In this document: positions 102 through 11,435 of the stretch, piece by piece
Position numbering within the stretch: position 1 is the stretch's first letter
How the letters are laid out: each line of letters begins with the position of its first letter
Assembly: GCA_049969715.1 (NCBI GenBank)
Contig: JBMFOH010000041.1
Coordinates: 1 to 11,945 of the forward strand
Source of the DNA: JBMFOH01 sp049969715 [NCBI: bacterium]
GTDB lineage: Bacteria > DUMJ01
Reading direction: 5' to 3'
Length of the DNA: 11,945 bases
The notes under the pieces: model-generated
Databases searched by the model: none
What the model was told of the DNA's origin: nothing
What the model saw: the letters and a program-made list of their open reading frames with translations, nothing else
Position numbers and translations under genes: made by a program

Positions 102-542
102 GTGAGACTACAAGAGGTTTTAGAGTTTGGAGAAAATCTACTACAGAGTTATGGAGGTGTTATTCGTCTTTTCCCTGGGTCCCCAGAATGTTGGCAAGAC
201 GCAGTATTTCACGATCTTAGGGCAGAAGGAGCATATCTGGTTTCTGCCATTAGAAAAGAAGGAAAGTGTATGTTTACTAGAGTATTTGCAGAGAAGGGTG
301 GCAAAGTAAGAGTAAAAGGAGATTTTAGCACTGAAAGAGTTATAGTTACCTCTAATGACTATAAAGTTATCGAAAAAAGGAATGCAGAAGATATAGAACT
401 TAAATTAAAAGAAGGGGAAGAGATCTTCATCTTTTCAGAAGATGCTATTTCCTCTGAGATTGAATTTGAAACACTACCAGGTAAACCTTGGGAATTTCAC
501 TCCTTTGGGGTGAAAGATAAGATTACCCCTTTTCCCAGGTAA
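102..542 (+). pseudogene. C-terminal fragment of a GH95-type alpha-L-fucosidase
   Basis: The 146-residue reading frame starts at GTG 102. Its opening part carries LLQSYGGVIRLFP, then a W-x-x-A-x-F-H and LRAEGAYLVSA block near residues 13-50. This is the pattern seen where the catalytic barrel of GH95-type glycosidases passes into the C-terminal beta domain. The remaining roughly 95 residues look like that beta domain. Full-length GH95 enzymes are about 700-800 residues, so the N-terminal and catalytic domains are missing. The frame is closed upstream by stops at 30-32, 75-77 and 93-95, and the other two forward frames of 1-101 show no GH95-like continuation. The Shine-Dalgarno site is weak (AAGG at 86-89). 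It is most likely a decayed or truncated remnant. Expression as a stand-alone beta domain is possible but unsupported. The next gene starts 15 bases after its stop. Confidence 0.65.
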
Positions 543-557
543 TAGGGGGAGGACTCA

Positions 558-1637
558 ATGACTTCTTATGAAAGAGTTAAAACATTACTAAACAAGGAAA
601 TTCCTGACAGGATGGGACTTTTTGAACATTTTTGGCCTGAGACATTGAGAGACTATTGGCCTAAACAAGGATATCCAGAAGGTGAGAAACCCGAATTTTA
701 CTTTGACTATGATATCTTTCTTTGTGGAGGATGGTTTAATACTGAACCTTTTATAGGTAGAAGAGAAATTATAAAGGAAACAGAGGAATGGTGGATTATA
801 AAAGATGGTAGAGGAGCAACATTAAAGTTTTGGAAGAATAAATCTGGAACTCCAGAGCATATAGGTTTTGAAGTAACAACTCCCCAGAAGTGGAAAGAGT
901 ATAGAGAACCCCTTCTTGAAGTAAATGAGGAAAGACTTGGCGATTTAGAGGAGATTAAGAATGCTCTAAAGATTGCAAGAGAAAAGAAAAAATTCGCTAT
1001 GTTTGGTAATATGTTTGTATTTGAGCTTATGCGTGCTACTATTGGAGATCAGAATTTCCTTCCAGCTTTACTTCTTGACCCTGAATGGATAAAGGATTTT
1101 TGTCAAGTCTATCTAGACCATTATATAAAACATTATGAGCTTCTCTTTCAGAAGGTAGGACTTCCAGATGGATTTTTCCTCTATGAAGACTTTGGTTATA
1201 GTAATGGTCCATTTTGTTCTCCAAAAACATATGAAGAATTGATATTCCCATATGAAAAGGCTCTTATATCTTTCCTAAAGGATTATGGGCTTCCTGTTAT
1301 TCTCCACTCTTGTGGAGATGTTCGCAAAGTTATTCCACTTATCATTGATGCAGGATTTGATTGTCTTCAGCCGATGGAGGCAAAAGCAGGATGTGATGTA
1401 ATAGAGATAGCAAAGACCTATGGAAGGAAGATTTCGTATATGGGGAATATTAATGTTGTTCCTTTGAGTACGAATGATCTGGAGAAGGTAAAAGAAGAGA
1501 TCGTACCAAAATTAAGAGAGCTAAAGCGAATGAGAATTCCGTATTTCTTTCATTCAGACCATTCTATTCCGCCTACGATTAACTTAGAGACTTATAAATA
1601 TGCATTACAGCTCTTTTATGAGAATAGTTGGTATTAG
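558..1637 (+). CDS. URO-D-fold methyltransferase-like protein A
   Basis: This 359-residue protein belongs to the uroporphyrinogen decarboxylase superfamily, which includes heme decarboxylase HemE and the zinc/corrinoid methyltransferases MtaA, MtbA and CmuA. The start is ATG 558 with GGGGAGG just upstream. Visible signatures are E210-D211 before G-x-FCSP, the block H250-S-C252-G in LPVILHSCGDV, then MGNINVVPL (about 295-303) and H332-S-D-H335-SIPP near the C-terminus. H-x-C matches the first two zinc ligands of MtaA-type enzymes. The usual third cysteine is replaced by the D-H pair. The HemE N-terminal R-P-V-W-x-M-R-Q-A-G-R motif is absent, so a role in heme synthesis is unlikely. It is the first intact gene of the operon and a soluble protein without a signal peptide. 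The substrate is unknown. A methyl transfer role is inferred from the metal motif and the sugar-catabolic neighbours. Confidence 0.8.
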   Translation: MTSYERVKTLLNKEIPDRMGLFEHFWPETLRDYWPKQGYPEGEKPEFYFDYDIFLCGGWFNTEPFIGRREIIKETEEWWIIKDGRGATLKFWKNKSGTPEHIGFEVTTPQKWKEYREPLLEVNEERLGDLEEIKNALKIAREKKKFAMFGNMFVFELMRATIGDQNFLPALLLDPEWIKDFCQVYLDHYIKHYELLFQKVGLPDGFFLYEDFGYSNGPFCSPKTYEELIFPYEKALISFLKDYGLPVILHSCGDVRKVIPLIIDAGFDCLQPMEAKAGCDVIEIAKTYGRKISYMGNINVVPLSTNDLEKVKEEIVPKLRELKRMRIPYFFHSDHSIPPTINLETYKYALQLFYENSWY

Positions 1638-1657
1638 ATCAACTAAGGTTATATAAT
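1628..1657 (+). promoter_or_regulatory. Possible internal promoter before MNT/HEPN module 1
   Basis: A perfect TATAAT (1652-1657) lies 18 bases after TTGGTA (1628-1633), which matches the -35 consensus at four of six positions. Transcription would start near 1664, right at the Shine-Dalgarno site of the MNT gene, giving a very short leader. AT-rich DNA produces TATAAT by chance, so support is modest. Confidence 0.35.
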
Positions 1658-1674
1658 TTATTTTGGGAGGATTA

Positions 1675-1968
1675 ATGAAAACTCTTGAGGAAATAAGAGA
1701 CATAATAGGGCAATATAAAGAGGAAATAGAAAGAGACTTTAATGCAGAGATAATAGCGTTTTTTGGTTCCTATGTAAGAGGTGAGCAGACAGAAAAAAGT
1801 GACATTGACTTGATTGTTAAATTTAAAGACTGGGCAACTCTTTTTGACTTTATAGGCTTAGCAGAATTTCTTGAAGAAAAGTTAAATGTAAGGGTAGATA
1901 TAGTTTCAGAAAGGGCTATAAGAGAAGAGTTGAAGGAAAAGATATTGAAAGAAGCAATAACAATATGA
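1675..1968 (+). CDS. MNT-domain antitoxin, module 1 (MntA-like)
   Basis: A 97-residue minimal nucleotidyltransferase. The family motif G-S-x10-D-x-D is complete (G31, S32, D43, D45) and the third acidic residue is D75 in RVDIVS. In characterised MntA-HepT pairs the MNT protein transfers AMP to a tyrosine of the HEPN toxin and silences it. The start is ATG 1675: GGGAGG (1665-1670) is five bases upstream, while the longer in-frame TTG at 1663 would bury that site. It overlaps the HEPN gene by four bases (ATGA), implying translational coupling. The module sits between two URO-D-like genes on the same strand. A possible own promoter is at 1628-1657. Confidence 0.88.
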   Translation: MKTLEEIRDIIGQYKEEIERDFNAEIIAFFGSYVRGEQTEKSDIDLIVKFKDWATLFDFIGLAEFLEEKLNVRVDIVSERAIREELKEKILKEAITI

Positions 1969-2318
1969 AGAGAGACTATCGGCTCTTTATAAAGGATATA
2001 ATCAATGCTATGTCTGCTATAGAGGAATTTGTTGGAGAGTTAACTTTTGAAGACTTTATAAAAGATGACAAGACCTTAAGTGCCGTTATAAGAAAGTTTG
2101 AAATAGTAGGTGAGGCAACTAAGAATATTCCTGATAATATAAGACAAAGATATCCGTATATCCCATGGAAACTTATGGCTGGAATGAGAGATAGACTTAT
2201 CCATGCCTACTTTGGTATTGATTATAAACTTGTATGGTATACAGTAAAAACCGAAATCCCCAAATTGAAGCCAAAATTACAAAAGATTCTTGAAGAATTA
2301 GAAGGAAACATCACTTAA
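1965..2318 (+). CDS. HEPN toxin, module 1 (HepT/DUF86-like)
   Basis: A 117-residue, mostly helical protein of the HepT/DUF86 group. The RNase motif R-x4-H is R75 to H80 in MRDRLIHAYFG, followed by Y82, which matches the R-x4-H-x-Y pattern whose tyrosine is AMPylated by MntA in studied systems. IVGEATKNIP (about 47-56) and PW near 67-68 are further family marks. Toxins of this group cleave RNA, in some cases tRNA. All key residues are present, so the toxin looks active in principle. Translation is coupled to the antitoxin by the ATGA overlap. The operon resumes 17 bases after its stop. Confidence 0.88.
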   Translation: MKRDYRLFIKDIINAMSAIEEFVGELTFEDFIKDDKTLSAVIRKFEIVGEATKNIPDNIRQRYPYIPWKLMAGMRDRLIHAYFGIDYKLVWYTVKTEIPKLKPKLQKILEELEGNIT

Positions 2319-2334
2319 GCGGAGGATTAAAGAG

Positions 2335-3594
2335 ATGGAAATAAGTAAAAGAGACAAATCTATACTTAGGTCTTTGGCTTACCAGATATCCGATATAGCA
2401 TCATTACCTATCCAAAAGGAAAAGGCCCAGATGTGGAAGAGGCTTAATAAGTTAGAAGATGTTAAACCTATGGTTTGGATCAATGAGATACCTTGGCAGG
2501 AGATGAATGTAGACGATGAGCTTACACTTCAATATGAAAGCAAGTTCTGCATAAGGATAGAGCAAGAGCTTCGTCAAACAATATACCAATGGAGACATTT
2601 GAGGGCTGATATGGTAGTTGAACCAAAGATCTATTGTCCTCTTGTGATCTATGATTCAGGATTTGGGATATCTGAAGAATCAGATGTTGCAAGTATCGAT
2701 CCAAATAATCCTGTAGTTTCAAGACACTTTCATTCTCAGATACAGGGTGAGGAAGACCTCGAGAAGATAAAGTATCCGGTAGTTACCTATGATGCCGAAG
2801 CAACTGAAGAACGATATCAACTTATGTGTGATATCTTTGATGGGATATTGCCTGTTGAGAAAAGAGGATTACCTGGATTCTGGTTTGCACCTTGGGATGA
2901 ACTTGTTACATGGTGGGGGGTAGAAAAGCTTATGATTGATCTTGTAGAGAGGCCGGACCTTGTTCATAAGGCGATAGCTAGGTTAGTAGATGCGCATTTA
3001 CATAAACTTGACCAGTATGAATCCATGGGATTACTCTCACTAAACAACGGTCCAATAAGGGTAGGTTCTGGTGGATACGGATATACAGACGAATTGCCTA
3101 AGCCAGGATTTGATCCAGAACATGTTAGACCAATTGATCTTTGGGGATGTGCCACCGCCCAGATTTTTGTTGCAGTTTCACCCCAGATGCACGAAGAGTT
3201 TGCAGTTAAATATGAAAAGAGATGGTTAGATAGGTTTGGATTAGCCTACTATGGATGCTGTGAGCCATTACATAGGAAGATGGATATGCTAAGAAGAAAT
3301 GTTCCTAATCTAAGAAAGGTATCGATGAACTATAGAGTGAATGTAGACGAGGCAGTAGAGGCAGTAGGTAGAGACTATGTATTTTCTTATAAACCGAATC
3401 CTGCAGTATTGGCAGAGGCGATTTGGAATGTAGAAAAGGCTAAGACTGAACTTGAGTATGTGTTAAAGAGAGCTAAGGAGAAAGGTTGCATAGTAGAGAT
3501 TATAATGAAAGATATAAGCACGGTTAACTATGAGCCACATAGATTATGGGAATGGGCTGAAATGGCAAGTGAGATTACGGAGGAATATAGCTAG
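2335..3594 (+). CDS. Large divergent URO-D-like protein B
   Basis: A 419-residue member of the URO-D superfamily, longer than its operon mates by about 55-70 residues. The start is ATG 2335 with GGAGG nine bases upstream. The assignment rests on the barrel-like order of blocks: the N-terminal region KPMVWINEIPW, W-x-P-W-D-E (about 183-189), a hydrophobic helix with ERPDLVHKAI (205-214), then YYGCCEPLHRK (305-315) and KVSMNYRVNVDEA (328-340). The last two blocks occupy the place of the H-x-C-G strand and the following strand in protein A. The metal site is therefore altered: C308, C309, E310 and H313 replace H-x-C-G. VSPQMHEEFAVKYEKRW (281-297) fits the conserved helix that starts with S-P in this fold. 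The reaction is unknown. Similar proteins are often labelled as URO-D or trimethylamine-corrinoid related, but the sequence does not fix a substrate. Confidence 0.7.
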   Translation: MEISKRDKSILRSLAYQISDIASLPIQKEKAQMWKRLNKLEDVKPMVWINEIPWQEMNVDDELTLQYESKFCIRIEQELRQTIYQWRHLRADMVVEPKIYCPLVIYDSGFGISEESDVASIDPNNPVVSRHFHSQIQGEEDLEKIKYPVVTYDAEATEERYQLMCDIFDGILPVEKRGLPGFWFAPWDELVTWWGVEKLMIDLVERPDLVHKAIARLVDAHLHKLDQYESMGLLSLNNGPIRVGSGGYGYTDELPKPGFDPEHVRPIDLWGCATAQIFVAVSPQMHEEFAVKYEKRWLDRFGLAYYGCCEPLHRKMDMLRRNVPNLRKVSMNYRVNVDEAVEAVGRDYVFSYKPNPAVLAEAIWNVEKAKTELEYVLKRAKEKGCIVEIIMKDISTVNYEPHRLWEWAEMASEITEEYS

Positions 3595-3636
3595 GTTCTA
3601 CTGTTTTTATCATATAATTATGAGAGAGGTATTAAT

Positions 3637-3930
3637 ATGAGAAATCTTGAGGAGATTAGGAGCATATTGTCCTATTACAAAAAGGAATTAAAAATAAAAT
3701 ACGGTGTTAGAGAGATAGGTATTTTTGGTTCTTACGTAAGAAATGAACAAAGACGATCGAGTGATATAGATATCTTAGTTGAGTTTGAAAAAACGCCGTC
3801 ACTTCTTGAATTTATTAATCTTGAAAATTATCTTTCAGATATTTTAGGTGTTAAAGTTGATCTTGTTATGAAAGACTCTTTAAAACCAAATATTGGTAGA
3901 CATATTCTAGAAGAGGTTATTTTAGTGTGA
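3637..3930 (+). CDS. MNT-domain antitoxin, module 2 (MntA-like)
   Basis: A 97-residue minimal nucleotidyltransferase with G31-S32, D43-x-D45 and D75, exactly the positions seen in the module 1 antitoxin. A gap-free hand alignment of the two gives about 39 of 97 identical residues, so they are homologous but not a recent duplication. The start is ATG 3637 with GAGAGAGG upstream. Its TGA overlaps the GTG of the HEPN gene (GTGA). Expected role: AMPylation and neutralisation of the partner HEPN toxin. A bare TATAAT at 3613-3618 precedes it, without a convincing -35 box. Confidence 0.87.
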   Translation: MRNLEEIRSILSYYKKELKIKYGVREIGIFGSYVRNEQRRSSDIDILVEFEKTPSLLEFINLENYLSDILGVKVDLVMKDSLKPNIGRHILEEVILV

Positions 3931-4274
3931 AAAGAGATGCGTTAGACTATATCAATGATATATTAACAGAGTGTGAATATCTCTTAAAATCCTCAGCTAA
4001 CATTGAATATTGTCGATTCATTCAGGATGAGAATTTAAAAAGAGCTTTTGTTAGAAGTCTAGAGGTTATAGGTGAAGCTACCAAAAAGATTCCACTAGAA
4101 ATCAGAGGAAAATATCAAGAGGTTCCCTGGAGAGATATGGCTGGGATAAGAGATAAATTAATACATGAGTATTTTGGTGTTAATTATGCAGTTGTATGGA
4201 AAACGATTATAGAGGATATTCCAGAGATTTATAAGATGTTTAGGAAAGTTTTGGAAGAAATTAATAAAACCTAA
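3927..4274 (+). CDS. HEPN toxin, module 2 (HepT/DUF86-like)
   Basis: A 115-residue HepT/DUF86-type protein. The motif R75-D-K-L-I-H80-E-Y82-F-G keeps the RNase R-x4-H and the target tyrosine. VIGEATKKIP (47-56) and VPWRDMAGI (66-74) match the module 1 toxin closely, while the first 45 residues differ strongly. The GTG start at 3927 is chosen because it overlaps the antitoxin stop as GTGA, the normal arrangement for these pairs, and the opening MKRD matches module 1. All catalytic residues are intact. The fucosidase gene begins 20 bases after its stop, so read-through from the operon promoter would also express this pair. Confidence 0.87.
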   Translation: MKRDALDYINDILTECEYLLKSSANIEYCRFIQDENLKRAFVRSLEVIGEATKKIPLEIRGKYQEVPWRDMAGIRDKLIHEYFGVNYAVVWKTIIEDIPEIYKMFRKVLEEINKT

Positions 4275-4294
4275 GAATGTAGGAGGTAGACACT

Positions 4295-5491
4295 ATGGAT
4301 AGGATGGATTGGTGGAGACAGGCAAAGTTTGGGATGTTTATTCATTGGGGAGTTTATAGTATCCCCGGTAGAGGGGAGTGGGTCATGTATCAGGAGAGAA
4401 TCCCTAAAGAGGAGTATAGAAAACTGGCAGATAAATTCAATCCAGAGAAGTATAATCCTGAAGAGTGGGTAAAACTTGCCAAAAAAGCAGGAATGAAGTA
4501 TATGGTTTTAACTACAAGGCACCATGATGGATTCTCTCTATTTGATAGTAAGGTGAGTGATTTTACTGCCCCTAAGAGTGCTGCTAAGAGGGACCTTATA
4601 AAAGAGTATGTAGAAGCATGTAGAAAGTATGATATGAGAATTGGCTTCTATTATTCTTTACTCGATTGGAGATATGATGCCTATTTCAAAGGTCCTAGAG
4701 ATGATCCGGAAGGTTGGAAAGAACTTGTGCAATATATACACACCCAAATAGAAGAGCTTATGACAAACTATGGAAAGATTGATATCCTTTGGTATGATGG
4801 AGGCTGGCCTTATACTGCAGAAGATTGGCAATCACAGAAGTTAAATGAAATGGTAAGAAGACATCAACCAGATATCATTATAAACAATAGGAGCCAATTG
4901 CCAGAGGATTTTGATACTCCTGAGCAGTATATACCTGGACATTTCCCTGCTCCTAATGCCCCCCAAAGAGACTGGGAATCCTGCATGACGTTAAATGACC
5001 ATTGGGGATACTGTAAAGGTGATAATAACTGGAAAAATCCCCAGGTAGTTATTTGGAACTTAGCAAGATGTGCCTCCGGAGGAGGGAACTATCTTTTGAA
5101 TGTTGGACCAAAGCCTGATGGAACAATTCCAGAAGAGTCGATTAAAATACTAGAGGAAGTTGGAAAATGGATGGAAAAGAACGGTGAAAGTATCTATGGG
5201 ACGGTAAGGACAAAGGTTGGATTCCCACATGGAGTAACAACTCTAAAGGATAATAAACTCTACATCCATGTATTCTACTGGAATGAAGAGTTTGCCTTGG
5301 CCCCTTGTAAGATTAATGTAAAGAGGGCATATTTCTTAAAGAATAAGGAAGAAGTAAATTTCACAGTAAAAGGAGAGAGGATTATATTTTCTGGCCTGCC
5401 TGAGAAAGCTCCTGATCCGATAGATACTGTAATTGTCCTTGAGTTTGAAGGTGATATAGAGGCTCTTGAATCGTTTAGAGCTTTTGATTAG
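4295..5491 (+). CDS. GH29 alpha-L-fucosidase
   Basis: A 398-residue glycoside hydrolase of family 29, a retaining exo-alpha-L-fucosidase. Visible family marks: WWRQAKFGMFIHWGVYS near the N-terminus (H17), TRHHDGFSLFDS (H76, H77), the nucleophile region DILWYDGGWPY with D168, RDWESCMTLNDHWGY with E228 as candidate acid/base, and SGGGNYLLNVGPKPDGTIP (261-279). The catalytic barrel fills about 1-295, and a short beta domain follows (about 300-388). There is no signal peptide, so it should act in the cytoplasm on imported oligosaccharides. The start is ATG 4295 with AGGAGG eight bases upstream. It directly precedes URO-D-like protein C and shares the operon with the fucose isomerase, which supports fucose as the released sugar. 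Confidence 0.92.
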   Translation: MDRMDWWRQAKFGMFIHWGVYSIPGRGEWVMYQERIPKEEYRKLADKFNPEKYNPEEWVKLAKKAGMKYMVLTTRHHDGFSLFDSKVSDFTAPKSAAKRDLIKEYVEACRKYDMRIGFYYSLLDWRYDAYFKGPRDDPEGWKELVQYIHTQIEELMTNYGKIDILWYDGGWPYTAEDWQSQKLNEMVRRHQPDIIINNRSQLPEDFDTPEQYIPGHFPAPNAPQRDWESCMTLNDHWGYCKGDNNWKNPQVVIWNLARCASGGGNYLLNVGPKPDGTIPEESIKILEEVGKWMEKNGESIYGTVRTKVGFPHGVTTLKDNKLYIHVFYWNEEFALAPCKINVKRAYFLKNKEEVNFTVKGERIIFSGLPEKAPDPIDTVIVLEFEGDIEALESFRAFD

Positions 5492-5502
5492 GTGACACTC
5501 TT

Positions 5503-6549
5503 ATGAGTAGACAGTTAGCCCTTGATACGATATATTTAAAGCCAATATCGCGTTTAGCTCATACAGAGTACAGTTTAGAGTATCATACAGACTATATATT
5601 GAAAAAGACAGGGATATCACCTCCTAATCCTGAGGCATTTAAAAAGCTCTATAACCTCTGGGAGATAGACTTTTTATGGATGACTAATGATGGACTTCAC
5701 CAAGATTGGGAGAAATTAGGACGAGCTACTGATATGGGGCATGCGGAATATGCTATTAATGGGAGTGATAAAAGGATTCCAAAGGAATGCCCATTTAAGA
5801 CACCTGAAGAGGTATGGGCTTTCGATGCAGTAGCAGAGTATGGATTGCCAGATTTCAATGAACAGATAGAGGCATATGAGAAGATGATTCAGACTACAAG
5901 AGAAATGTTTCCTGATCAGCTTGGCACAGGTGGTTATTATAAGACAATAGTCTCTGGAGCTATACAGGCATTTGGATGGGAGATGTTTCTCTTGGCACTA
6001 ACAGATATTAATAAGATGGAAAAGGTTTTAGATAGTATCTTCCGATTTACCCTATTCCATATGGAAGCTTGGGCAAAGACAAGTGCAGAGGTTATTATTC
6101 AACATGACGATTTTGTCTGGGCTAGCGGACCATTTATGAGACCAGAGATATACCGTAAGATAATCATTCCTAGATATGCGGAACTATGGAAGCCTTTACA
6201 CAAGGCTGGAAAGAAGGTCTTATTCTGTTCTGATGGTAACTTTATGGAATTTGCAGAGGATATAGTTAATGCGGGGGCTGATGGTCTTATCTTTGAACCC
6301 TGTAATGACTTTGGTTTTATGGCAAAAAGATTTGGAGATTCTACTGTCTTAGTTGGAAGTTATGTTGATTGTAGAGACCTAACTCTTGGTAAATGGGATG
6401 TAGTAAGAGCCAATATAGATAAAACAATAGAAACAGCCCAAAAATGTAGAGGAGTTATATTTGCAGTAGGAAATCATCTTCCACCAAATATACCTGATGA
6501 GATGATGGAGAGGTATATAGGGTATCTGAAAGAGAGATTAGAAGGATAA
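5503..6549 (+). CDS. URO-D-like protein C with altered metal site
   Basis: A 348-residue URO-D-superfamily protein. The start is ATG 5503, with AGGTGA overlapping the end of the fucosidase gene. Typical blocks are IIQHDDFVWASGPFMRPEIY (198-217; D202, D203, then the fold's G-x-x-x-x-P segment), PLHKAGKKVLFCSDGNF (231-247), ADGLIFEPCND (259-269), VLVGSYVDCRDL (282-293) and AVGNHLPPNIPDEMMERY (321-338). Where proteins A and D carry H-x-C-G, this one has C242-S-D-G, so the first histidine ligand is lost. C242, C267, C290 and H325 could provide an alternative metal site, but this is inference. Proteins of this general type occur near carbohydrate genes in various bacteria. The reaction is not established from sequence. 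Confidence 0.75.
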   Translation: MSRQLALDTIYLKPISRLAHTEYSLEYHTDYILKKTGISPPNPEAFKKLYNLWEIDFLWMTNDGLHQDWEKLGRATDMGHAEYAINGSDKRIPKECPFKTPEEVWAFDAVAEYGLPDFNEQIEAYEKMIQTTREMFPDQLGTGGYYKTIVSGAIQAFGWEMFLLALTDINKMEKVLDSIFRFTLFHMEAWAKTSAEVIIQHDDFVWASGPFMRPEIYRKIIIPRYAELWKPLHKAGKKVLFCSDGNFMEFAEDIVNAGADGLIFEPCNDFGFMAKRFGDSTVLVGSYVDCRDLTLGKWDVVRANIDKTIETAQKCRGVIFAVGNHLPPNIPDEMMERYIGYLKERLEG

Positions 6550-6552
6550 AAG

Positions 6553-6690
6553 ATGCTTTATATGGATTCTGAGAATAAGGTTAATGTACTAAGAGATATA
6601 CTATTAAAGGCTCGTTTAGAAATGGAAAGAGCAAACCTTACAGAGAAAGAGGCTATTGAGATGCTCAAAGAAAAGTTAAAAGATTTTTAG
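6553..6690 (+). CDS. Small charged helical protein, 45 residues, unknown function
   Basis: ATG 6553 follows the stop of protein C by three bases, and GAAGGA (6540-6545) lies seven bases upstream as a Shine-Dalgarno site. The frame runs 45 codons to TAG at 6688-6690, and the next gene starts eight bases later, so it fills the only gap of the operon. It reads MLYMDSENKVNVLRD and then RLEMERANLTEKEAIEMLK, rich in E, K and L, and should form one or two amphipathic helices. There are no cysteines, membrane segment or known motif. I do not recognise the family. The exact fit in the gap, the Shine-Dalgarno site and the protein-like composition argue for a real gene. It may be an accessory or regulatory peptide of a neighbouring enzyme. 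Confidence 0.6.
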   Translation: MLYMDSENKVNVLRDILLKARLEMERANLTEKEAIEMLKEKLKDF

Positions 6691-6698
6691 GAGGCTTT

Positions 6699-7793
6699 AT
6701 GAAGAAATTCAAGGTTCCATTTGAGAAGCCTGAGCCAAACTTCTATGAATTTAAAGATGTACTTCTAGGCAAGAAGCCAGCTAGAAGGGTCCATTTTGTC
6801 GAGTTATTTCCAGATATAGAGATTATCTGGTATATTACAGAAAATATCTTGGGAGATAAAATTATTCGTTCTCCTCAAGAAGATTCCCAAGGTTTCTGGA
6901 GACAGCAGATAAACTTCTGGTATAAAATGGGCTATGATTATATTAGGGTCTCTGGAGGCTTAAACTTCACTGAACAGAAAAGAAGAGTTGCCTCTGATAC
7001 TGCTATCCTATCAAGAGGGGAGAGAAATTGGATAGAAGAGACAGTTGGAGTAATATCTTCCTGGAAGGACTTTGAAAAGTACAAATGGCCTACTCAAGAG
7101 TCTTTTGATTATTCCAACTATGAGTTTGTCTCTAAGAATCTACCAGAAGGGATGAAGATGTTGGTGTGTCCATCAAGTGGTGTCTTTGAGATTAGTAGTG
7201 AAGCTTTATTAGGCTTTGAGGGTATGAGTTATCTCTTATATGAAGACTACGAGTTAGTAAAGGCAGTATTTGATAGGGTTGGAGAGATAATCTATAGATT
7301 CTATGAAGATCTTATTACTCTTGATAATGTGGAAGGGATCTTCCAAGGAGATGACCTTGGTTTTAAGACAAGTACCATATTATCTCCAAAATTCTTAAGA
7401 GAATTGGTCTTACCTTGGCATAAGAGATATGCTGAACTTGCCCATAGATACAATAAGATGTATTGGTTCCACTGCTGTGGAAACGTCTTGGAGATCATAG
7501 AAGACCTGATAGAGGATGTAAAGATAGATGCCCTTCACTCATTTCAAGATACTATAATCCCTGTGACTGAATTTAAAGAGAAGTATGGAGATAGGATAGC
7601 GGTATTAGGTGGGGTAGATGTTGATAAGTTATGCAGGCTGGAAGAGAAAGAACTCAGAGCTTATATAAGAAGCATACTTGATAGGTGTATGCCATATAGG
7701 TATGCCTTAGGCTCAGGGAATACGGTAACAAACTATGTGCCAGTAGAGAATTATCTAGTAATGTTAGATGAAGGGGTGAGATACTATGATTGA
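6699..7793 (+). CDS. URO-D-fold methyltransferase-like protein D
   Basis: A 364-residue URO-D-superfamily protein. The start is ATG 6699 with AGGAGG close upstream. Family marks: GIFQGDDLGFKTSTILSP (213-230; D218, D219), helix LRELVLPWHKRYAELAH, the strand MYWFHCCGNVLEIIEDL (254-270) with H258-C-C260-G, DALHSFQD (277-284), VLGGVDVDKL (302-311) and ALGSGNTVTNYVPVENY (336-352). H258 and C260 match the first two zinc ligands of MtaA/MtbA/CmuA-type methyltransferases. The third cysteine of that site seems absent, with S339-G-N in its place. It overlaps the following glycosidase gene by eight bases, so the two are probably translated together. The substrate is unknown; transfer of a methyl group from a sugar methyl ether is a hypothesis from context. 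Confidence 0.8.
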   Translation: MKKFKVPFEKPEPNFYEFKDVLLGKKPARRVHFVELFPDIEIIWYITENILGDKIIRSPQEDSQGFWRQQINFWYKMGYDYIRVSGGLNFTEQKRRVASDTAILSRGERNWIEETVGVISSWKDFEKYKWPTQESFDYSNYEFVSKNLPEGMKMLVCPSSGVFEISSEALLGFEGMSYLLYEDYELVKAVFDRVGEIIYRFYEDLITLDNVEGIFQGDDLGFKTSTILSPKFLRELVLPWHKRYAELAHRYNKMYWFHCCGNVLEIIEDLIEDVKIDALHSFQDTIIPVTEFKEKYGDRIAVLGGVDVDKLCRLEEKELRAYIRSILDRCMPYRYALGSGNTVTNYVPVENYLVMLDEGVRYYD

Positions 7794-9771
7794 ATTACCC
7801 TTTAGGCAGGTCCATCTTGATTTTCACACCTCACCATTGATACCAGATGTAGGGATAGATTTCGATCCTGAGGAATTTGCCAAGACACTTAAGGAGTCCT
7901 ACGTTAACTCCATCACAGTATTTGCCAAGTGTCATCATGGGATGTCATATTATCCTACCAAGGTAGGAGTTATGCATCCTTCACTCAAAAGAGACCTTTT
8001 GGGCGAGATGGTAGAAGCATGCCATAAAGAAAATATTAGAGTTTGTGCTTATATTAGTGTAGTCTGGGATGAATATTCTGCTAGTAATCATGGGGATTGG
8101 CTACAAGTTAATAAGGATGGAACTTTAGCTGGAAGGCCACCTTTTGGTAATAGAGGTTGGAGATTTTTGTGTATGAACTCTCCCTATGTAGATTATGTGG
8201 CAGAACAGACAGAAGAGGTGCTTAAACTATACGATGTAGATGGTGTTTTCTTTGATATAGTGATGCAAACATATCCTGGTTGTGTATGTAATCACTGTAT
8301 GAAGAGTATGAAGAAACTAGGCCTTGATCCAACAAACGATGCGGATCTTTATAAGCATTCCCAGATCGTGGGCAGAAACTTCATGTCTAGAATGGATAAA
8401 TTAGTAAAGAGTCTAAAGCCAGAGATAAGTGTATTCTATAACTCTAGGCTTAGACTTGAGAGTGACTTTGAACTTGGTATGGGACAAGAATCAGGCTACT
8501 TCACTCACTTTGAGATAGAGTCTTTACCATCTGGCGGTTGGGGATACAATCATTTCCCTCTATTTGTCCGTTACTATCAGACCCTAGGGAAAGACCTCTT
8601 AGGAATGACAGGAAGGTTCCATAAGAGTTGGGCAGACTTTGGCGGCTTTAAAAATAGACCTGCATTAGAGTATGAATGCTTTACAATGCTCTCTTTAGGG
8701 GCAAAATGTTCAATAGGAGACCAGTTACATCCAAGAGGAAAGCTAGATAAGACCGCTTATAACCTTATAGGAAGTGTCTATAAAAAGGTTGCTGAGAGGG
8801 AAGAGTGGTGTAAGAATGCAAAACCTCTGTCTGACATAGGGGTTCTTATCTCTAGTTCCTTCTACAATGAGTGGAGGACCGACTCTGATGAAGGTGCTAT
8901 GAGAATGCTATCTGAATCTCATTATCAATTTTCTTTTATAGATTCACAGGAAGACCTGAATAAATATAAGCTTATAATAGCTCCTGATAGGATAAATATT
9001 GATAAGATTCTGGCTGAGAAGATAAAAGAATACTTAAAAGATGGAGGGAAGCTTATAGTAAGCTATAAGTCTGGATTAGCTGGTGATAGATTTGTCTTAG
9101 ATGAACTAGGGGTTGATTATCTTGGTGACAGTGATTATTGCCCAGACTATTTTAGAGTATTAGCCCCTATAGATAAAGATATAGAACCTGCAGAGTATGT
9201 AATGTATGAAAGAGGAACAAAAATTCAGCCTAGAGATGGAGCTCAAGTTTTAGTTGAAACCTATCAGCCATACTTCAATAGAACCTGGGAGCATTTTTCA
9301 TCTCATGCCCAGACCCCACCAGAGAAGAAGAGTATATATCCGGCGGTAGTTAGAAATGGCAGTGTGATATATATAAATTATCCTATCTTTAGAGCCTATG
9401 TGGTAAGTGGAAATCTAGTTTATAAAAAGCTAGTTAAAAACTGTATAGACCTACTTCTAGATAAACCATTAGTCCTAGATAATGCTCCATCTACTGCAAG
9501 AATTACTGTTACCTCTCAAGAACTCAATGGAAAGGAAAGATTTATTGCTCATATACTCCACTATATTCCAGAGAGAAGATGTAAGAGTATAGATATAATA
9601 GAAGATGTAATACCTATCTACAATGTCAAACTCCAAGTAAGGCTCGATAAGTCTCCATCTAGATGTTATCTTGCACCCCAGATGAAAGAGCTAGATTTCG
9701 TGTATAATAATGGATATGTAGATTTTACTGTTCCAAAAGTAGATGGATACCAGATAGTAGTATTAGAATAA
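7786..9771 (+). CDS. Putative glycosidase, GHL6 barrel with GH42M-like domain
   Basis: A 661-residue protein. The N-terminal half (about 1-340) resembles the hypothetical glycosyl hydrolase 6 (GHL6) barrel: QVHLDFHTSP, KCHHGMSYYP, a substrate-loop-like VWDEYS, and VDGVFFDI (151-158) with D157 as candidate catalytic acid, followed by C166-V-C168-N-H-C171. HFEIESLPSGG (241-251) offers further acidic candidates (E243, E245). Residues about 350-455 look like the beta-galactosidase trimerisation fold (GH42M): SDIGVLISSSFYNEW, then KLIIAP and LKDGGKLIVSYKSG. The C-terminal beta region follows. No signal peptide is seen. The start is ATG 7786, inside the last codons of protein D, with AAGGGGTGAG upstream. 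Enzymatic specificity of this group is poorly defined. The operon suggests a fucose-containing or methylated oligosaccharide as substrate, which is inference. Confidence 0.7.
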   Translation: MIELPFRQVHLDFHTSPLIPDVGIDFDPEEFAKTLKESYVNSITVFAKCHHGMSYYPTKVGVMHPSLKRDLLGEMVEACHKENIRVCAYISVVWDEYSASNHGDWLQVNKDGTLAGRPPFGNRGWRFLCMNSPYVDYVAEQTEEVLKLYDVDGVFFDIVMQTYPGCVCNHCMKSMKKLGLDPTNDADLYKHSQIVGRNFMSRMDKLVKSLKPEISVFYNSRLRLESDFELGMGQESGYFTHFEIESLPSGGWGYNHFPLFVRYYQTLGKDLLGMTGRFHKSWADFGGFKNRPALEYECFTMLSLGAKCSIGDQLHPRGKLDKTAYNLIGSVYKKVAEREEWCKNAKPLSDIGVLISSSFYNEWRTDSDEGAMRMLSESHYQFSFIDSQEDLNKYKLIIAPDRINIDKILAEKIKEYLKDGGKLIVSYKSGLAGDRFVLDELGVDYLGDSDYCPDYFRVLAPIDKDIEPAEYVMYERGTKIQPRDGAQVLVETYQPYFNRTWEHFSSHAQTPPEKKSIYPAVVRNGSVIYINYPIFRAYVVSGNLVYKKLVKNCIDLLLDKPLVLDNAPSTARITVTSQELNGKERFIAHILHYIPERRCKSIDIIEDVIPIYNVKLQVRLDKSPSRCYLAPQMKELDFVYNNGYVDFTVPKVDGYQIVVLE

Positions 9772-9787
9772 GAAAGGAGTGAGAAAA

Positions 9788-11284
9788 ATGAGATCAGCAC
9801 CTATTGGAATTGTTATGGTAAATGATGGGAGACCTCATGTCTATTCAGCCAACGAAGAAGAAAATATGCAGGTGGTAAAGAGATGGGCTGAGATTATAAG
9901 GAAGAACTTAAAGAACATTGATGGAACCTCTCCTGAAGTAGTTATTGCTTCTGAAACTATTAAAAGTGTTAGGACTGCCCAAAAGATAGGGGAAGAACTT
10001 ACCAGGGCAAACTGCAAACAGATAATAATGTGCTATAATGTCTGGGACTTTCCTTATCTAGCTTGGCCATTCTTAAACTCTTTAGATAGTAATGTCCCTA
10101 TCCTGAGTCTATCTAATAATAATGCCCAGTATCCTGGAAATGTAGGTCTTCTTGCTACAGATGGAGAGATTAGGCAGACTGGAAGAAGAACTCATAGGAT
10201 AGTTGGAGACATAGACGAACCTAAGGTTCAGGAAAAGGTTATTAAGTGGTTAAGGGCTTCCCAAGCGGTGACAACTATGAGGGGAGAGGTCTATGGACTC
10301 TATGGTGGACACTCTATGGGTATGGAGACTGGATACTTCCATCTAGTGCCAAACATAAAGACATTCGGAATTACTGCATATCAGATAGACCAGTTACTTT
10401 TAGTAAAGGCTATGGAAGAGATAGATGAAAAAGAGGTAAATAAGGGGTTCCAATGGTTTATGGATTTATTAGGAGATAGGATTCTTTATGATGGAAAGAT
10501 GCTTACCCCAGAAACATTAAGAACACAGATTAGGCTTTATCTGGCTATGAAAAGGGTCAATGAGGAGAACGGATTTGACTTCTGTGGGCTTAAGGGTCAG
10601 AGAGAGTTGACAGAATATGTGTGTCTTGGAGATATTCCAGAGATGCTTATGAATGACCCCTATGACTGGAATGGGTTCAAAGAGCCTACTGTATGTGCTA
10701 CAGAGGCGGATTCATTTGCTGCTTTGACTATGGAAATCCTTAAATACATAAGTGGTGGACTTCCTGTACTCTTTATGGATGTAAGGATTTACTATCCAGA
10801 TAAGGATGTATGGGATTTCTGCAACTCTGGGAATCATGCCAGTTATTATGCCTCTCTAAGTTTAGATCCAAAGGAGAATTTCAAGAAAATAACACTTTAT
10901 CCTGCTCTTGAGTACTACTTTAAGGCTGGAGGGGCATCAGTCTCATTTGACGCAGCCCCAACAAAACTGACATTCGCTAGACTTGGGTTATACGATAATA
11001 AACCATATATGGTTATAGTCCCTGGAGAGAGTTTAGACCTTCCTGAAGAGGAGAAAAAGGCAATCAATAATCTCTCTAATCCCACCTGGCCCCATGTCCA
11101 CGCTAGATTAGAATGTTCATTTGAAGAATTCTTAAATGTATTCCCTGCAAATCATATCCAGGCTATACCAGGAGATTATGTAGATACCTTAGTTTACTAT
11201 TGTGAGATACTTGGTATAAAGCCTATAGTTCTAGGCCCAAGGGGTAAAGAGAGGCTTACACCACTCTGGGAGATTCTAGAATAA
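9788..11284 (+). CDS. L-fucose isomerase family protein (FucI-like)
   Basis: A 498-residue member of the L-fucose/L-arabinose isomerase family, which converts L-fucose to L-fuculose using Mn2+. ATG 9788 is preferred over in-frame GTG 9779 because AAAGGAG (9773-9779) overlaps the GTG and stands eight bases before the ATG. The proposed metal ligands, by alignment to E. coli FucI from memory, are E306 in CATEADSF, D331 in LFMDVRIYYP and H456 in FPANHIQAIPGDYVDTL, corresponding to E337, D361 and H528. It is about 90 residues shorter than E. coli FucI (591). GGHSMGMETG (about 173-182) matches the family's conserved G-rich segment. It is the last gene before the operon terminator. The nearby fucosidase supports fucose as substrate, but another 6-deoxy sugar or arabinose cannot be excluded. 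Confidence 0.82.
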   Translation: MRSAPIGIVMVNDGRPHVYSANEEENMQVVKRWAEIIRKNLKNIDGTSPEVVIASETIKSVRTAQKIGEELTRANCKQIIMCYNVWDFPYLAWPFLNSLDSNVPILSLSNNNAQYPGNVGLLATDGEIRQTGRRTHRIVGDIDEPKVQEKVIKWLRASQAVTTMRGEVYGLYGGHSMGMETGYFHLVPNIKTFGITAYQIDQLLLVKAMEEIDEKEVNKGFQWFMDLLGDRILYDGKMLTPETLRTQIRLYLAMKRVNEENGFDFCGLKGQRELTEYVCLGDIPEMLMNDPYDWNGFKEPTVCATEADSFAALTMEILKYISGGLPVLFMDVRIYYPDKDVWDFCNSGNHASYYASLSLDPKENFKKITLYPALEYYFKAGGASVSFDAAPTKLTFARLGLYDNKPYMVIVPGESLDLPEEEKKAINNLSNPTWPHVHARLECSFEEFLNVFPANHIQAIPGDYVDTLVYYCEILGIKPIVLGPRGKERLTPLWEILE

Positions 11285-11290
11285 AACTTT

Positions 11291-11314
11291 AGGGCGCCTA
11301 ACGGCGCCCTTTTT
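11291..11314 (+). terminator. Intrinsic terminator of the operon
   Basis: A perfect 8-bp GC-rich stem, AGGGCGCC and GGCGCCCT, closes a four-base TAAC loop and is followed at once by a T-rich run (TTTTTATTTCTT). It lies six bases after the isomerase stop codon and ends the transcription unit. Confidence 0.93.
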
Positions 11315-11366: not shown

Positions 11367-11396
11367 TTGCATCTGTATTTTATCCTGATATATAAT
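11367..11396 (+). promoter_or_regulatory. Sigma-A-like promoter of the LacI-family gene
   Basis: A perfect -10 box TATAAT (11391-11396) stands 18 bases after TTGCAT (11367-11372), which keeps the TTG of the -35 consensus. The expected start is near 11403, about 50 bases before the regulator's ATG. Confidence 0.6.
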
Positions 11397-11435
11397 AATA
11401 TCGATTTTAGAAAACGATATTAAAAAACGATATTA
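11397..11435. promoter_or_regulatory. Putative autoregulatory operator
   Basis: AATATCG (11397-11403) and CGATATT (11415-11421) form a perfect inverted repeat with an 11-base spacer. The right half, AAAACGATATTA (11411-11422), is repeated identically at 11424-11435, a 13-base step. The element covers the expected transcription start just after the -10 box, where a bound repressor would block transcription. Binding by the adjacent LacI-family protein is inferred from position. Confidence 0.5.

What the first reader, a model, noticed from the sequence alone, without database searches (positions are those of the whole stretch)
558..11284. Four divergent URO-D-fold proteins inside one fucose-catabolic operon
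URO-D-like proteins A, B, C and D lie on one strand with a GH29 fucosidase, a GHL6-type glycosidase and a fucose isomerase-family enzyme, with almost no spacing. None shows the HemE signature, and A and D keep an H-x-C-G motif like zinc/corrinoid methyltransferases. A coherent idea is removal of methyl groups from O-methylated fucose or related sugars so that glycosidases and the isomerase can act. The C1 unit could enter corrinoid metabolism. Other options are decarboxylation or lyase chemistry on an acidic sugar. I do not know of a described pathway of this form.
Basis: partly seen in the sequence, partly recalled or inferred. Interest (0 to 1): 0.75.

Follow-up and report, generated by a model that had tools for sequence, protein, structure and literature searches.

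The report
URO-D-fold enzymes in sugar operon
A sugar-degrading gene cluster carries four distantly related enzymes that may strip methyl groups from methylated sugars with the help of a vitamin B12 protein made elsewhere in the cell, a way of using such sugars without oxygen that I could not find described.

Summary
A, C and D match Pfam URO-D above cut-off; B falls below it, but its family profile is URO-D-like. They share a strand with a GH29 fucosidase, a GHL6 protein and a divergent FucI-like isomerase. Two nucleotidyltransferase/HEPN-like pairs interrupt the run, and a conserved terminator ends it. Relatives keep B, GH29, C, D, GHL6 and FucI; A was not found there.

The corrinoid idea gains support. 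No corrinoid gene lies in the window, and its genome is not held. Yet 14 of 14 genomes bearing a C homologue have a RACo-type corrinoid activase (1 of 14 controls) and a B12-binding protein (9 of 14 controls). In 151 genomes of one phylum, all 103 with three or more URO-D hits have RACo, against 1 of 48. In the three closest genomes a corrinoid gene follows two URO-D genes, in a sugar locus where annotated.

I read A-D as substrate:corrinoid methyltransferases for O-methylated sugars, sharing one corrinoid protein in trans. Methyl transfer, substrate and cofactor are inferred. The C family is not fucose-specific, and some URO-D paralogues sit in housekeeping contexts. Aromatic O-demethylases of this superfamily are known; a sugar version was not found in my searches.

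The parts
102..542 (+). 146-aa ORF with only the C-terminal domain of GH95 (fucosidase family); just 101 bases upstream of it are in the window
   Evidence: Pfam PF21307 6.1e-8; the other two forward frames of 1-541 are broken by stops
558..1637 (+). URO-D protein A (HSCG ... DH motif); proposed substrate:corrinoid methyltransferase
   Evidence: Pfam 60.4 bits; MtaA/CmuA model 2e-14, below cut-off; AF2 model, best fold UroD
2335..3594 (+). URO-D superfamily protein B (YGCC motif), a separate conserved family
   Evidence: Profile matches; homologues in 12 of 14 genomes; beside a FucI-like gene in L073 and L074
4295..5491 (+). GH29 alpha-L-fucosidase
   Evidence: Pfam 5.9e-96; solved fucosidase 6gn6 4.2e-98
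5503..6549 (+). URO-D protein C (CSDG ... NH motif)
   Evidence: Pfam 63.0 bits; 15-row family with invariant D202 D203 C242 D244 H325; AF2 pLDDT 90.6 and UroD fold
6699..7793 (+). URO-D protein D (HCCG ... GN motif)
   Evidence: Pfam 53.9 bits; 84-87% identical in L001, L002, L010
7786..9771 (+). GHL6-type glycosidase-like protein with a partial match to the GH42 trimerisation domain
   Evidence: Pfam GHL6 1.8e-42, Alpha_L_fucos 2.2e-12, GH42M 8.6e-10
9779..11284 (+). divergent L-fucose/D-arabinose isomerase-like protein; its ATE and DVR segments align with those of FucI (that these hold metal ligands is recalled)
   Evidence: Pfam PF07881/PF07882/PF02952; 1fui 4.7e-25 and alignment; below equivalog cut-offs
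11291..11310 (+). terminator-like hairpin closing the operon, conserved in L002 with a changed loop
11454..11945 (+). LacI-family regulator (runs off the window), after repeats of AACGATATTA
   Evidence: Pfam 1.9e-13; repeats

Best explanation
A, C, D and probably B are substrate-specific methyltransferases (MTI) of the UroD superfamily that take methyl groups from O-methylated sugars, here probably O-methyl-fucose or a related deoxy-sugar released or exposed by GH29/GHL6, and pass them to the Co(I) of one stand-alone corrinoid protein encoded elsewhere, kept active by a RACo-type ATP-dependent reductase. The demethylated sugar is then open to the FucI-like isomerase, and the methyl group enters C1 metabolism (tetrahydrofolate, or methionine). 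The four paralogues would differ in methyl position or sugar; A-type proteins would use a metal (H-x-C ... D-H) as Lewis acid. Shown by computation: the fold of A and C, superfamily membership of all four, the gene order, and association with corrinoid genes in relatives. Inferred: methyl transfer, sugar substrate, sharing of one corrinoid protein, metal role, fate of the methyl.
For: (1) 14 of 14 genomes with a C homologue carry RACo (1 of 14 controls) and PF02607 (1-3 hits each; 9 of 14 controls), against 16-75 URO-D hits each (three genomes were capped at 75 scored candidates). (2) 151 genomes of one phylum: RACo in 103 of 103 with >=3 URO-D hits and 1 of 48 with 0-2; 63 of 63 genomes with a C orthologue at E<=1.2e-99 have RACo (104 of 151 overall). 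59 relatives of G001: 12 of 12 with >=4 URO-D hits versus 11 of 47. (3) In G001, G002 and G010, the three genomes sharing this cluster, a 212-aa corrinoid protein (DxHxxG present) follows two URO-D genes; in G001 Pfam shows lyxose isomerase, aldolase, Zn-dehydrogenase, FGGY kinase and a solute-binding protein around it, with a LacI gene beside. (4) G001 also has MtaB directly before a URO-D/B12-binding fusion. (5) UroD-superfamily O-demethylases MtvB, OdmB, VdmB, MtoB are known, and zinc is not always needed (PMC13222342, passages). (6) A keeps a possible metal triad, HxC plus a His aligned with the later Cys of the CmuA-like protein.
Against: No corrinoid or activase gene lies in the window, and its own genome is not held. 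The genome-level association is not corrected for shared ancestry, may track an anaerobic lifestyle, and its threshold of three was chosen after seeing the counts. B12-binding proteins are common in controls (9 of 14). Corrinoid genes lie beside a URO-D gene on the same strand in only 4 of the 16 places examined, of 24 found, and three of the four are close relatives. C has no canonical Zn ligands. The C family occurs mostly alone in other genomes (another URO-D gene beside it in 2 of 30), so it is not fucose-bound. A was not found in the conserved cluster of relatives. Some URO-D genes lie near RelA/SpoT, Cas10 or Clp-type genes. One corrinoid protein for about 20 MTIs has no precedent that I know of.
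Confidence: 0.5

Rival explanations
1. The URO-D proteins are corrinoid methyltransferases, but for other methyl donors (methanol, methylamines, methyl-sulfur, aryl methyl ethers of plant walls) that arrive together with the glycan; the sugar enzymes are only co-regulated.
For: G001 has MtaB beside a CmuA-like fusion; G009 has an MTTB protein, a corrinoid protein, GH42 and a FucI-like protein in one run; mlp clusters are proposed to act in methyl-sulfur/selenide metabolism (PMC10418091, abstract and passages).
Against: B, C and D lie among GH29, GHL6 and FucI-like genes in relatives as well (L001 and L010; C and D also in L002), and B is beside a FucI-like gene in G011 and G012.
Confidence: 0.18
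2. The URO-D-fold proteins do not use corrinoid at all and perform sugar chemistry on the barrel, such as decarboxylation, retro-aldol cleavage, epimerisation or lyase action.
For: C lacks the H-x-C-G motif yet has an invariant polar site; Foldseek also lists sugar epimerases, far below UroD; B-family genes lie beside sulfatase, Zn-dehydrogenase and MFS transporter genes; some URO-D genes are in non-corrinoid contexts.
Against: All 63 genomes with a C orthologue in the 151-genome sample have the RACo activase, and so do all 103 genomes with three or more URO-D hits; a sugar lyase would need no corrinoid reductase.
Confidence: 0.19
3. Division of labour: one of the four (A with its HxC..H site, or D) is the methyltransferase, and the others are MTII-type, structural or substrate-binding partners.
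For: The motifs differ in all four; some URO-D genes come in unlike pairs, one A-like and one of another type (L005, L009; L015-L017).
Against: The C family is highly conserved at putative active-site positions, unlike a degenerate subunit, and mostly stands alone (28 of 30 loci).
Confidence: 0.13

Closest known systems
UroD-superfamily aromatic O-demethylase MTI (MtvB, OdmB, VdmB, MtoB) and CdmB
   Same: Same superfamily fold; corrinoid-dependent methyl transfer needing an ATP-dependent activating enzyme, a type present in the relatives of the window
   Different: Those act with a corrinoid protein and an MTII, clustered with them in the Cdm and Mto operons described, on methoxylated aromatics or haloalkanes; here no corrinoid gene is in the window and the neighbours are glycosidases and a sugar isomerase. 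Sequence kinship to them was not tested
MtaA/MtbA/CmuA family
   Same: Best NCBIfam matches of A, C and D; fold of A and C
   Different: Scores far below cut-offs (53.6 of 235.4 for A); the H-C-C set is not complete in any of A-D
P450 demethylation of 6-O-methyl-D-galactose in marine bacteria
   Same: Removes a sugar O-methyl group so that degradation can go on (PMC8360166, passages)
   Different: Uses a monooxygenase and yields formaldehyde; a corrinoid route would need no oxygen
Uroporphyrinogen decarboxylase HemE
   Same: Fold
   Different: No HemE model among the matches at E<=0.1

Membership tests
Corrinoid-dependent O-demethylase MTI (UroD superfamily) | UroD-type barrel | tested here: met
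   A and C by models, D by Pfam, B by family profile only
Corrinoid-dependent O-demethylase MTI (UroD superfamily) | Cognate corrinoid protein in the same cluster | tested here: not met
   No B12-binding match among the 10 window proteins scanned (the HEPN-like ORFs and the second small pair were not scanned). In the three closest genomes a corrinoid gene lies in another locus beside two URO-D genes. The window may not hold the whole cluster
Corrinoid-dependent O-demethylase MTI (UroD superfamily) | Corrinoid activating enzyme in the genome | tested here: inconclusive
   Window genome not held; present in 14 of 14 related genomes
Corrinoid-dependent O-demethylase MTI (UroD superfamily) | Methyl transfer from a methyl ether to Co(I) | not testable with these tools
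   Needs an assay
Corrinoid-dependent O-demethylase MTI (UroD superfamily) | Clusters with MtvB/OdmB/VdmB/MtoB in a tree | not tested
   Reference sequences were not at hand
MtaA/CmuA methyltransferase | Score over the curated cut-off | tested here: not met
   TIGR01463: 53.6 of 235.4 bits for A, 23.1 for C, 26.2 for D; no match for B
MtaA/CmuA methyltransferase | Zinc ligands H-x-C ... C (ligand roles recalled) | tested here: not met
   A HxC..H, D HxC without third ligand, C CxD..H with the His one column off, B none; the CmuA-like L035 has the full set
Uroporphyrinogen decarboxylase HemE | Match to a HemE model | tested here: not met
   None among the matches at E<=0.1 for A-D
GH29 alpha-L-fucosidase | Family match | tested here: met
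   Pfam 5.9e-96; 6gn6 4.2e-98
L-fucose isomerase FucI | Equivalog cut-off | tested here: not met
   129.8 of 850 bits; 139.2 of 775 bits

The most novel reading that the evidence does not exclude
A widespread oxygen-independent route in which many URO-D methyltransferases, each tied to one glycan locus, demethylate O-methylated sugars and feed a single shared corrinoid protein and activase: a hub-and-spoke system that couples polysaccharide breakdown to C1 metabolism in Armatimonadota and, by the genomes that carry C, perhaps Kiritimatiellota, Lentisphaerae and others.
Probability: 0.38. Interest if true: 0.82.

Novelty: new variant of a known kind. Interest (0 to 1): 0.62.

Why it matters
Methyl groups on sugars can block further degradation, and the removal route named in the paper passages I read uses oxygen (P450, PMC8360166). 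A corrinoid route would explain how anaerobes use methylated glycans, give a function to dozens of unexplained URO-D paralogues per genome, and make sugar methyl groups a C1 source. The 103-of-103 versus 1-of-48 co-occurrence makes this directly testable with a small set of purified proteins.

Tried and rejected
HemE function: rejected, no HemE match. Judging B from three near-identical rows gave only 6.2%; a wider family settled it.

GH67 as a general partner (it could release 4-O-methyl-glucuronate; recalled): in G001 a GH67 gene, split in two frames, lies directly upstream of a URO-D gene (L090). But in 13 other GH67 loci, fetched with about 6 kb on either side where contigs allowed, 0 had a URO-D-like ORF at E<=1e-5 to 26 reference proteins; three of those genomes (G018, G111, G144) are listed with 0 URO-D hits. 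Left as a single case.

C as fucose-specific: rejected; in 30 loci of other genomes C is mostly alone. The flanks of C annotated (10 proteins) are mixed: glycosidase-like in L011 and L007, a xylose-isomerase-like protein in L006, but an Omp85 protein and a TPR protein in L008, a histidine kinase in L003, an FAD oxidoreductase in L013, a beta-helix protein in L004, and no family for one L003 protein.

Neighbour tally of URO-D genes in G001/G002: 79 proteins at 15 places, out of 91 proteins at 17 places (the 12 from L097 and L099 were left out because those loci look like orthologues of L091 and L095). Result: 6 BPD_transp_1 and 5 SBP_bac_5, but also GidB and Clp families; only the first 25 of 156 families are shown. 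The 17 places are part of the 22 and 25 hits of these genomes. A control tally was planned and not run; its regions were not used.

A LacI-type consensus operator gave 1 match with one mismatch, no more than chance (27 of 200 shuffles had one). A profile of the A family found no PDB sequence at E<=0.01. The plasmid collection holds only 3 records with distant matches to A. Promoter-like hits were 56 versus 38.9 (sd 6.6) in shuffles and were not pursued.

Literature: ten searches of the held open library; among the listed titles and abstract beginnings I saw none on corrinoid demethylation of sugars. Beyond listings I saw passages of PMC13222342 (and its section 9), PMC10418091 (with abstract), PMC8630106 and PMC8360166. 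Most subscription papers are not held.
Full report
WHAT IS THERE. The window holds one run of + strand genes: a GH95 C-terminal domain ORF (102-542), A (558-1637), a nucleotidyltransferase plus a HEPN-like ORF (1663-2318; 'HEPN' is recalled, not from a call), B (2335-3594), a second similar-looking pair (3637-4274), GH29 (4295-5491), C (5503-6549), D (6699-7793), GHL6 (7786-9771) and a FucI-like isomerase (9779-11284). A hairpin with a T-run follows (11291-11310), conserved in the relative L002; a LacI-family gene comes next. Pfam URO-D is over cut-off in A, C and D, not in B. B belongs to the superfamily by family profile: 96.5% against the A family, 8.8e-7 to part of a solved UroD; its distant relatives L082 and L083 show HSCG where B has YGCC. 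Models of C and A (pLDDT 90.6 and 87.0) align best to UroD at Z 25.0 (3.5 A, 307 residues) and Z 28.0 (2.9 A, 315 residues), and to the methylcobalamin:CoM methyltransferase of M. mazei (4ay7/4ay8) at up to 22.1 and 25.7. No HemE model is among the matches at E<=0.1.

RELATIVES. One genome scan with C gave 14 loci in 14 genomes, 44-82% identical. L001, L002 and L010 keep GH29-C-D-GHL6-FucI in order, with B upstream in L001 and L010; L002 begins at GH29, and in G002 B lies on another contig beside a GH29-like gene. LacI follows in L002. A short-chain dehydrogenase sits between GH29 and C in L002, and an unannotated 265-aa ORF in the same place in L010. Two Opp-type ATPase genes precede in L010 and a permease gene in L001. 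A was not found in these loci; its nearest kin seen in G002 are 33% and 35% identical (L100, L101), L101 between an SBP_bac_5 gene and two permease genes. In G011 and G012 a B homologue directly follows a FucI-like gene 75-76% identical to the window's.

CORRINOID LINK. The window's genome is not held. In the 14 related genomes RACo_C_ter and PF02607 (B12-binding cap) are found in 14 of 14 each, with 1-4 and 1-3 hits per genome, against 16-75 URO-D hits (three genomes capped). RACo rang in 1 of 14 control genomes, PF02607 in 9 of 14, so RACo is the telling one. In 151 genomes of the phylum of G006 (drawn by the tool), RACo was found in 104 and URO-D in 116. All 103 with three or more URO-D hits have RACo; 1 of the 48 with 0-2 does (Fisher p 1.5e-38, not corrected for kinship; without four genomes that came through C: 99 of 99 versus 1 of 48). 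The threshold was set after seeing the counts; 13 genomes have one or two hits, 1 of them with RACo, and none without a hit has RACo. Counts are lower bounds, as about 12 candidates were scored per genome. In 59 relatives of G001 (G001, G002 and G010 included), 12 of 12 with four or more hits versus 11 of 47 have RACo; at three or more it is 12 of 13, G020 being the exception; without those three genomes, 9 of 9 versus 11 of 47. A C orthologue (E<=1.2e-99) is in 63 of the 151 genomes, all 63 with RACo. Other phyla were not sampled in this way.

WHERE THE CORRINOID PROTEIN IS. In G001, G002 and G010 a 212-aa corrinoid protein with the DxHxxG motif follows two URO-D genes. In G001 the surroundings are a D-lyxose isomerase, a class II aldolase, a Zn-dehydrogenase, an FGGY kinase and a solute-binding protein, with a LacI gene; G002 and G010 show the same URO-D/corrinoid/498-aa ORF/LacI layout but were not annotated by Pfam. 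Of 24 PF02607 places I examined 16: all 16 have DxHxxG and 4 have a URO-D gene beside them on the same strand (L015, L016, L017, L023); in L028 a C-like gene lies within 4 kb on the other strand. Two further flags (L026, L032) come from the corrinoid ORFs themselves matching the B12 part of a reference and do not count. G001 also has MtaB directly before a URO-D/B12-binding fusion, followed by a Prismane/CO dehydrogenase family gene. A possible acceptor of the methyl group is a homocysteine-methyltransferase/pterin-binding protein (571 aa in G010); G001, G002 and G010 each have one PF00809 hit. Completeness of the Wood-Ljungdahl path was not tested.

ACTIVE SITES. In alignment A1 the CmuA-like L035 has HICG and a later GC. 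A has HSCG and SDH, the His in the column of that Cys. Other A-like proteins keep D-H with HSCG or DSDG. C has CSDG and GNH (His one column off), and its 15-row family keeps H80, H201-D202-D203, C242, D244, E265 and H325 invariant. D has HCCG and GSGN. B has YGCC. So a metal site is likely in A, possible in C, doubtful in D and B; the models were not examined for geometry. Zinc is not required by CdmB and was not found in a Moorella O-demethylase (PMC13222342, passages), so loss of ligands does not exclude the reaction. The ligand roles in MtaA are recalled, from no call.

READING. I take A-D as MTI-type methyltransferases that hand methyl groups from O-methylated sugars to a corrinoid protein shared with other URO-D paralogues. 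Support is genomic, not biochemical. The step 'sugar' rests on gene order; the step 'fucose' on GH29 and a divergent FucI relative. Results against: several URO-D genes of G001/G002 lie in housekeeping neighbourhoods; C is mostly alone elsewhere (another URO-D gene beside it in 2 of 30); GH67 linkage was a single case; same-strand corrinoid linkage was 4 of 16.

KNOWN OR NOT. UroD-superfamily O-demethylases for methoxylated aromatics are established (PMC13222342 and PMC8630106, passages), and the tree described in PMC13222342 includes clades of MTIs with unknown substrates (section 9). The word 'sugar' does not occur in the main text held of PMC13222342 or PMC10418091. Sugar O-demethylation by P450 is described (PMC8360166, passages). 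Ten literature searches named under Tried and rejected listed no paper that I recognised as corrinoid demethylation of sugars. Hence: new variant of a known kind, with a bolder reading as a hub-and-spoke system.

Noticed in passing
window 1663-2318 and 3637-4274: Two pairs of small ORFs lie inside the sugar operon: a nucleotidyltransferase (Pfam) with a HEPN-like ORF, and a second similar-looking pair (HEPN is recalled). L001 has relatives of such a pair between B and GH29, and L002 has a PIN-domain ORF between C and D.
   Followed up: partly
window 11396-11435: Three AACGATATTA-like repeats, one inverted, upstream of the LacI gene; 7 matches to the 12-base pattern with up to 2 mismatches in the window versus 1.9 expected; the stretch is largely conserved in L002.
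   Followed up: partly
L030 (G009): A run of genes with an MTTB-family protein, a corrinoid protein, GH42, a class III aminotransferase, a xylose-isomerase-like protein, a transaldolase-like protein and a FucI-like protein: another sugar/corrinoid pairing.
   Followed up: no
L090 7033-10151 (G001): A URO-D gene directly downstream of a GH67 gene that is split into two frames.
   Followed up: yes
L086 5678-10165 (G001): MtaB, then a URO-D + B12-binding fusion protein, then a Prismane/CO dehydrogenase family gene: a methanol-type system in the same genome.
   Followed up: partly
L094 169-3527 (G001): Cas10/Cmr2 and RAMP genes near a URO-D gene.
   Followed up: no
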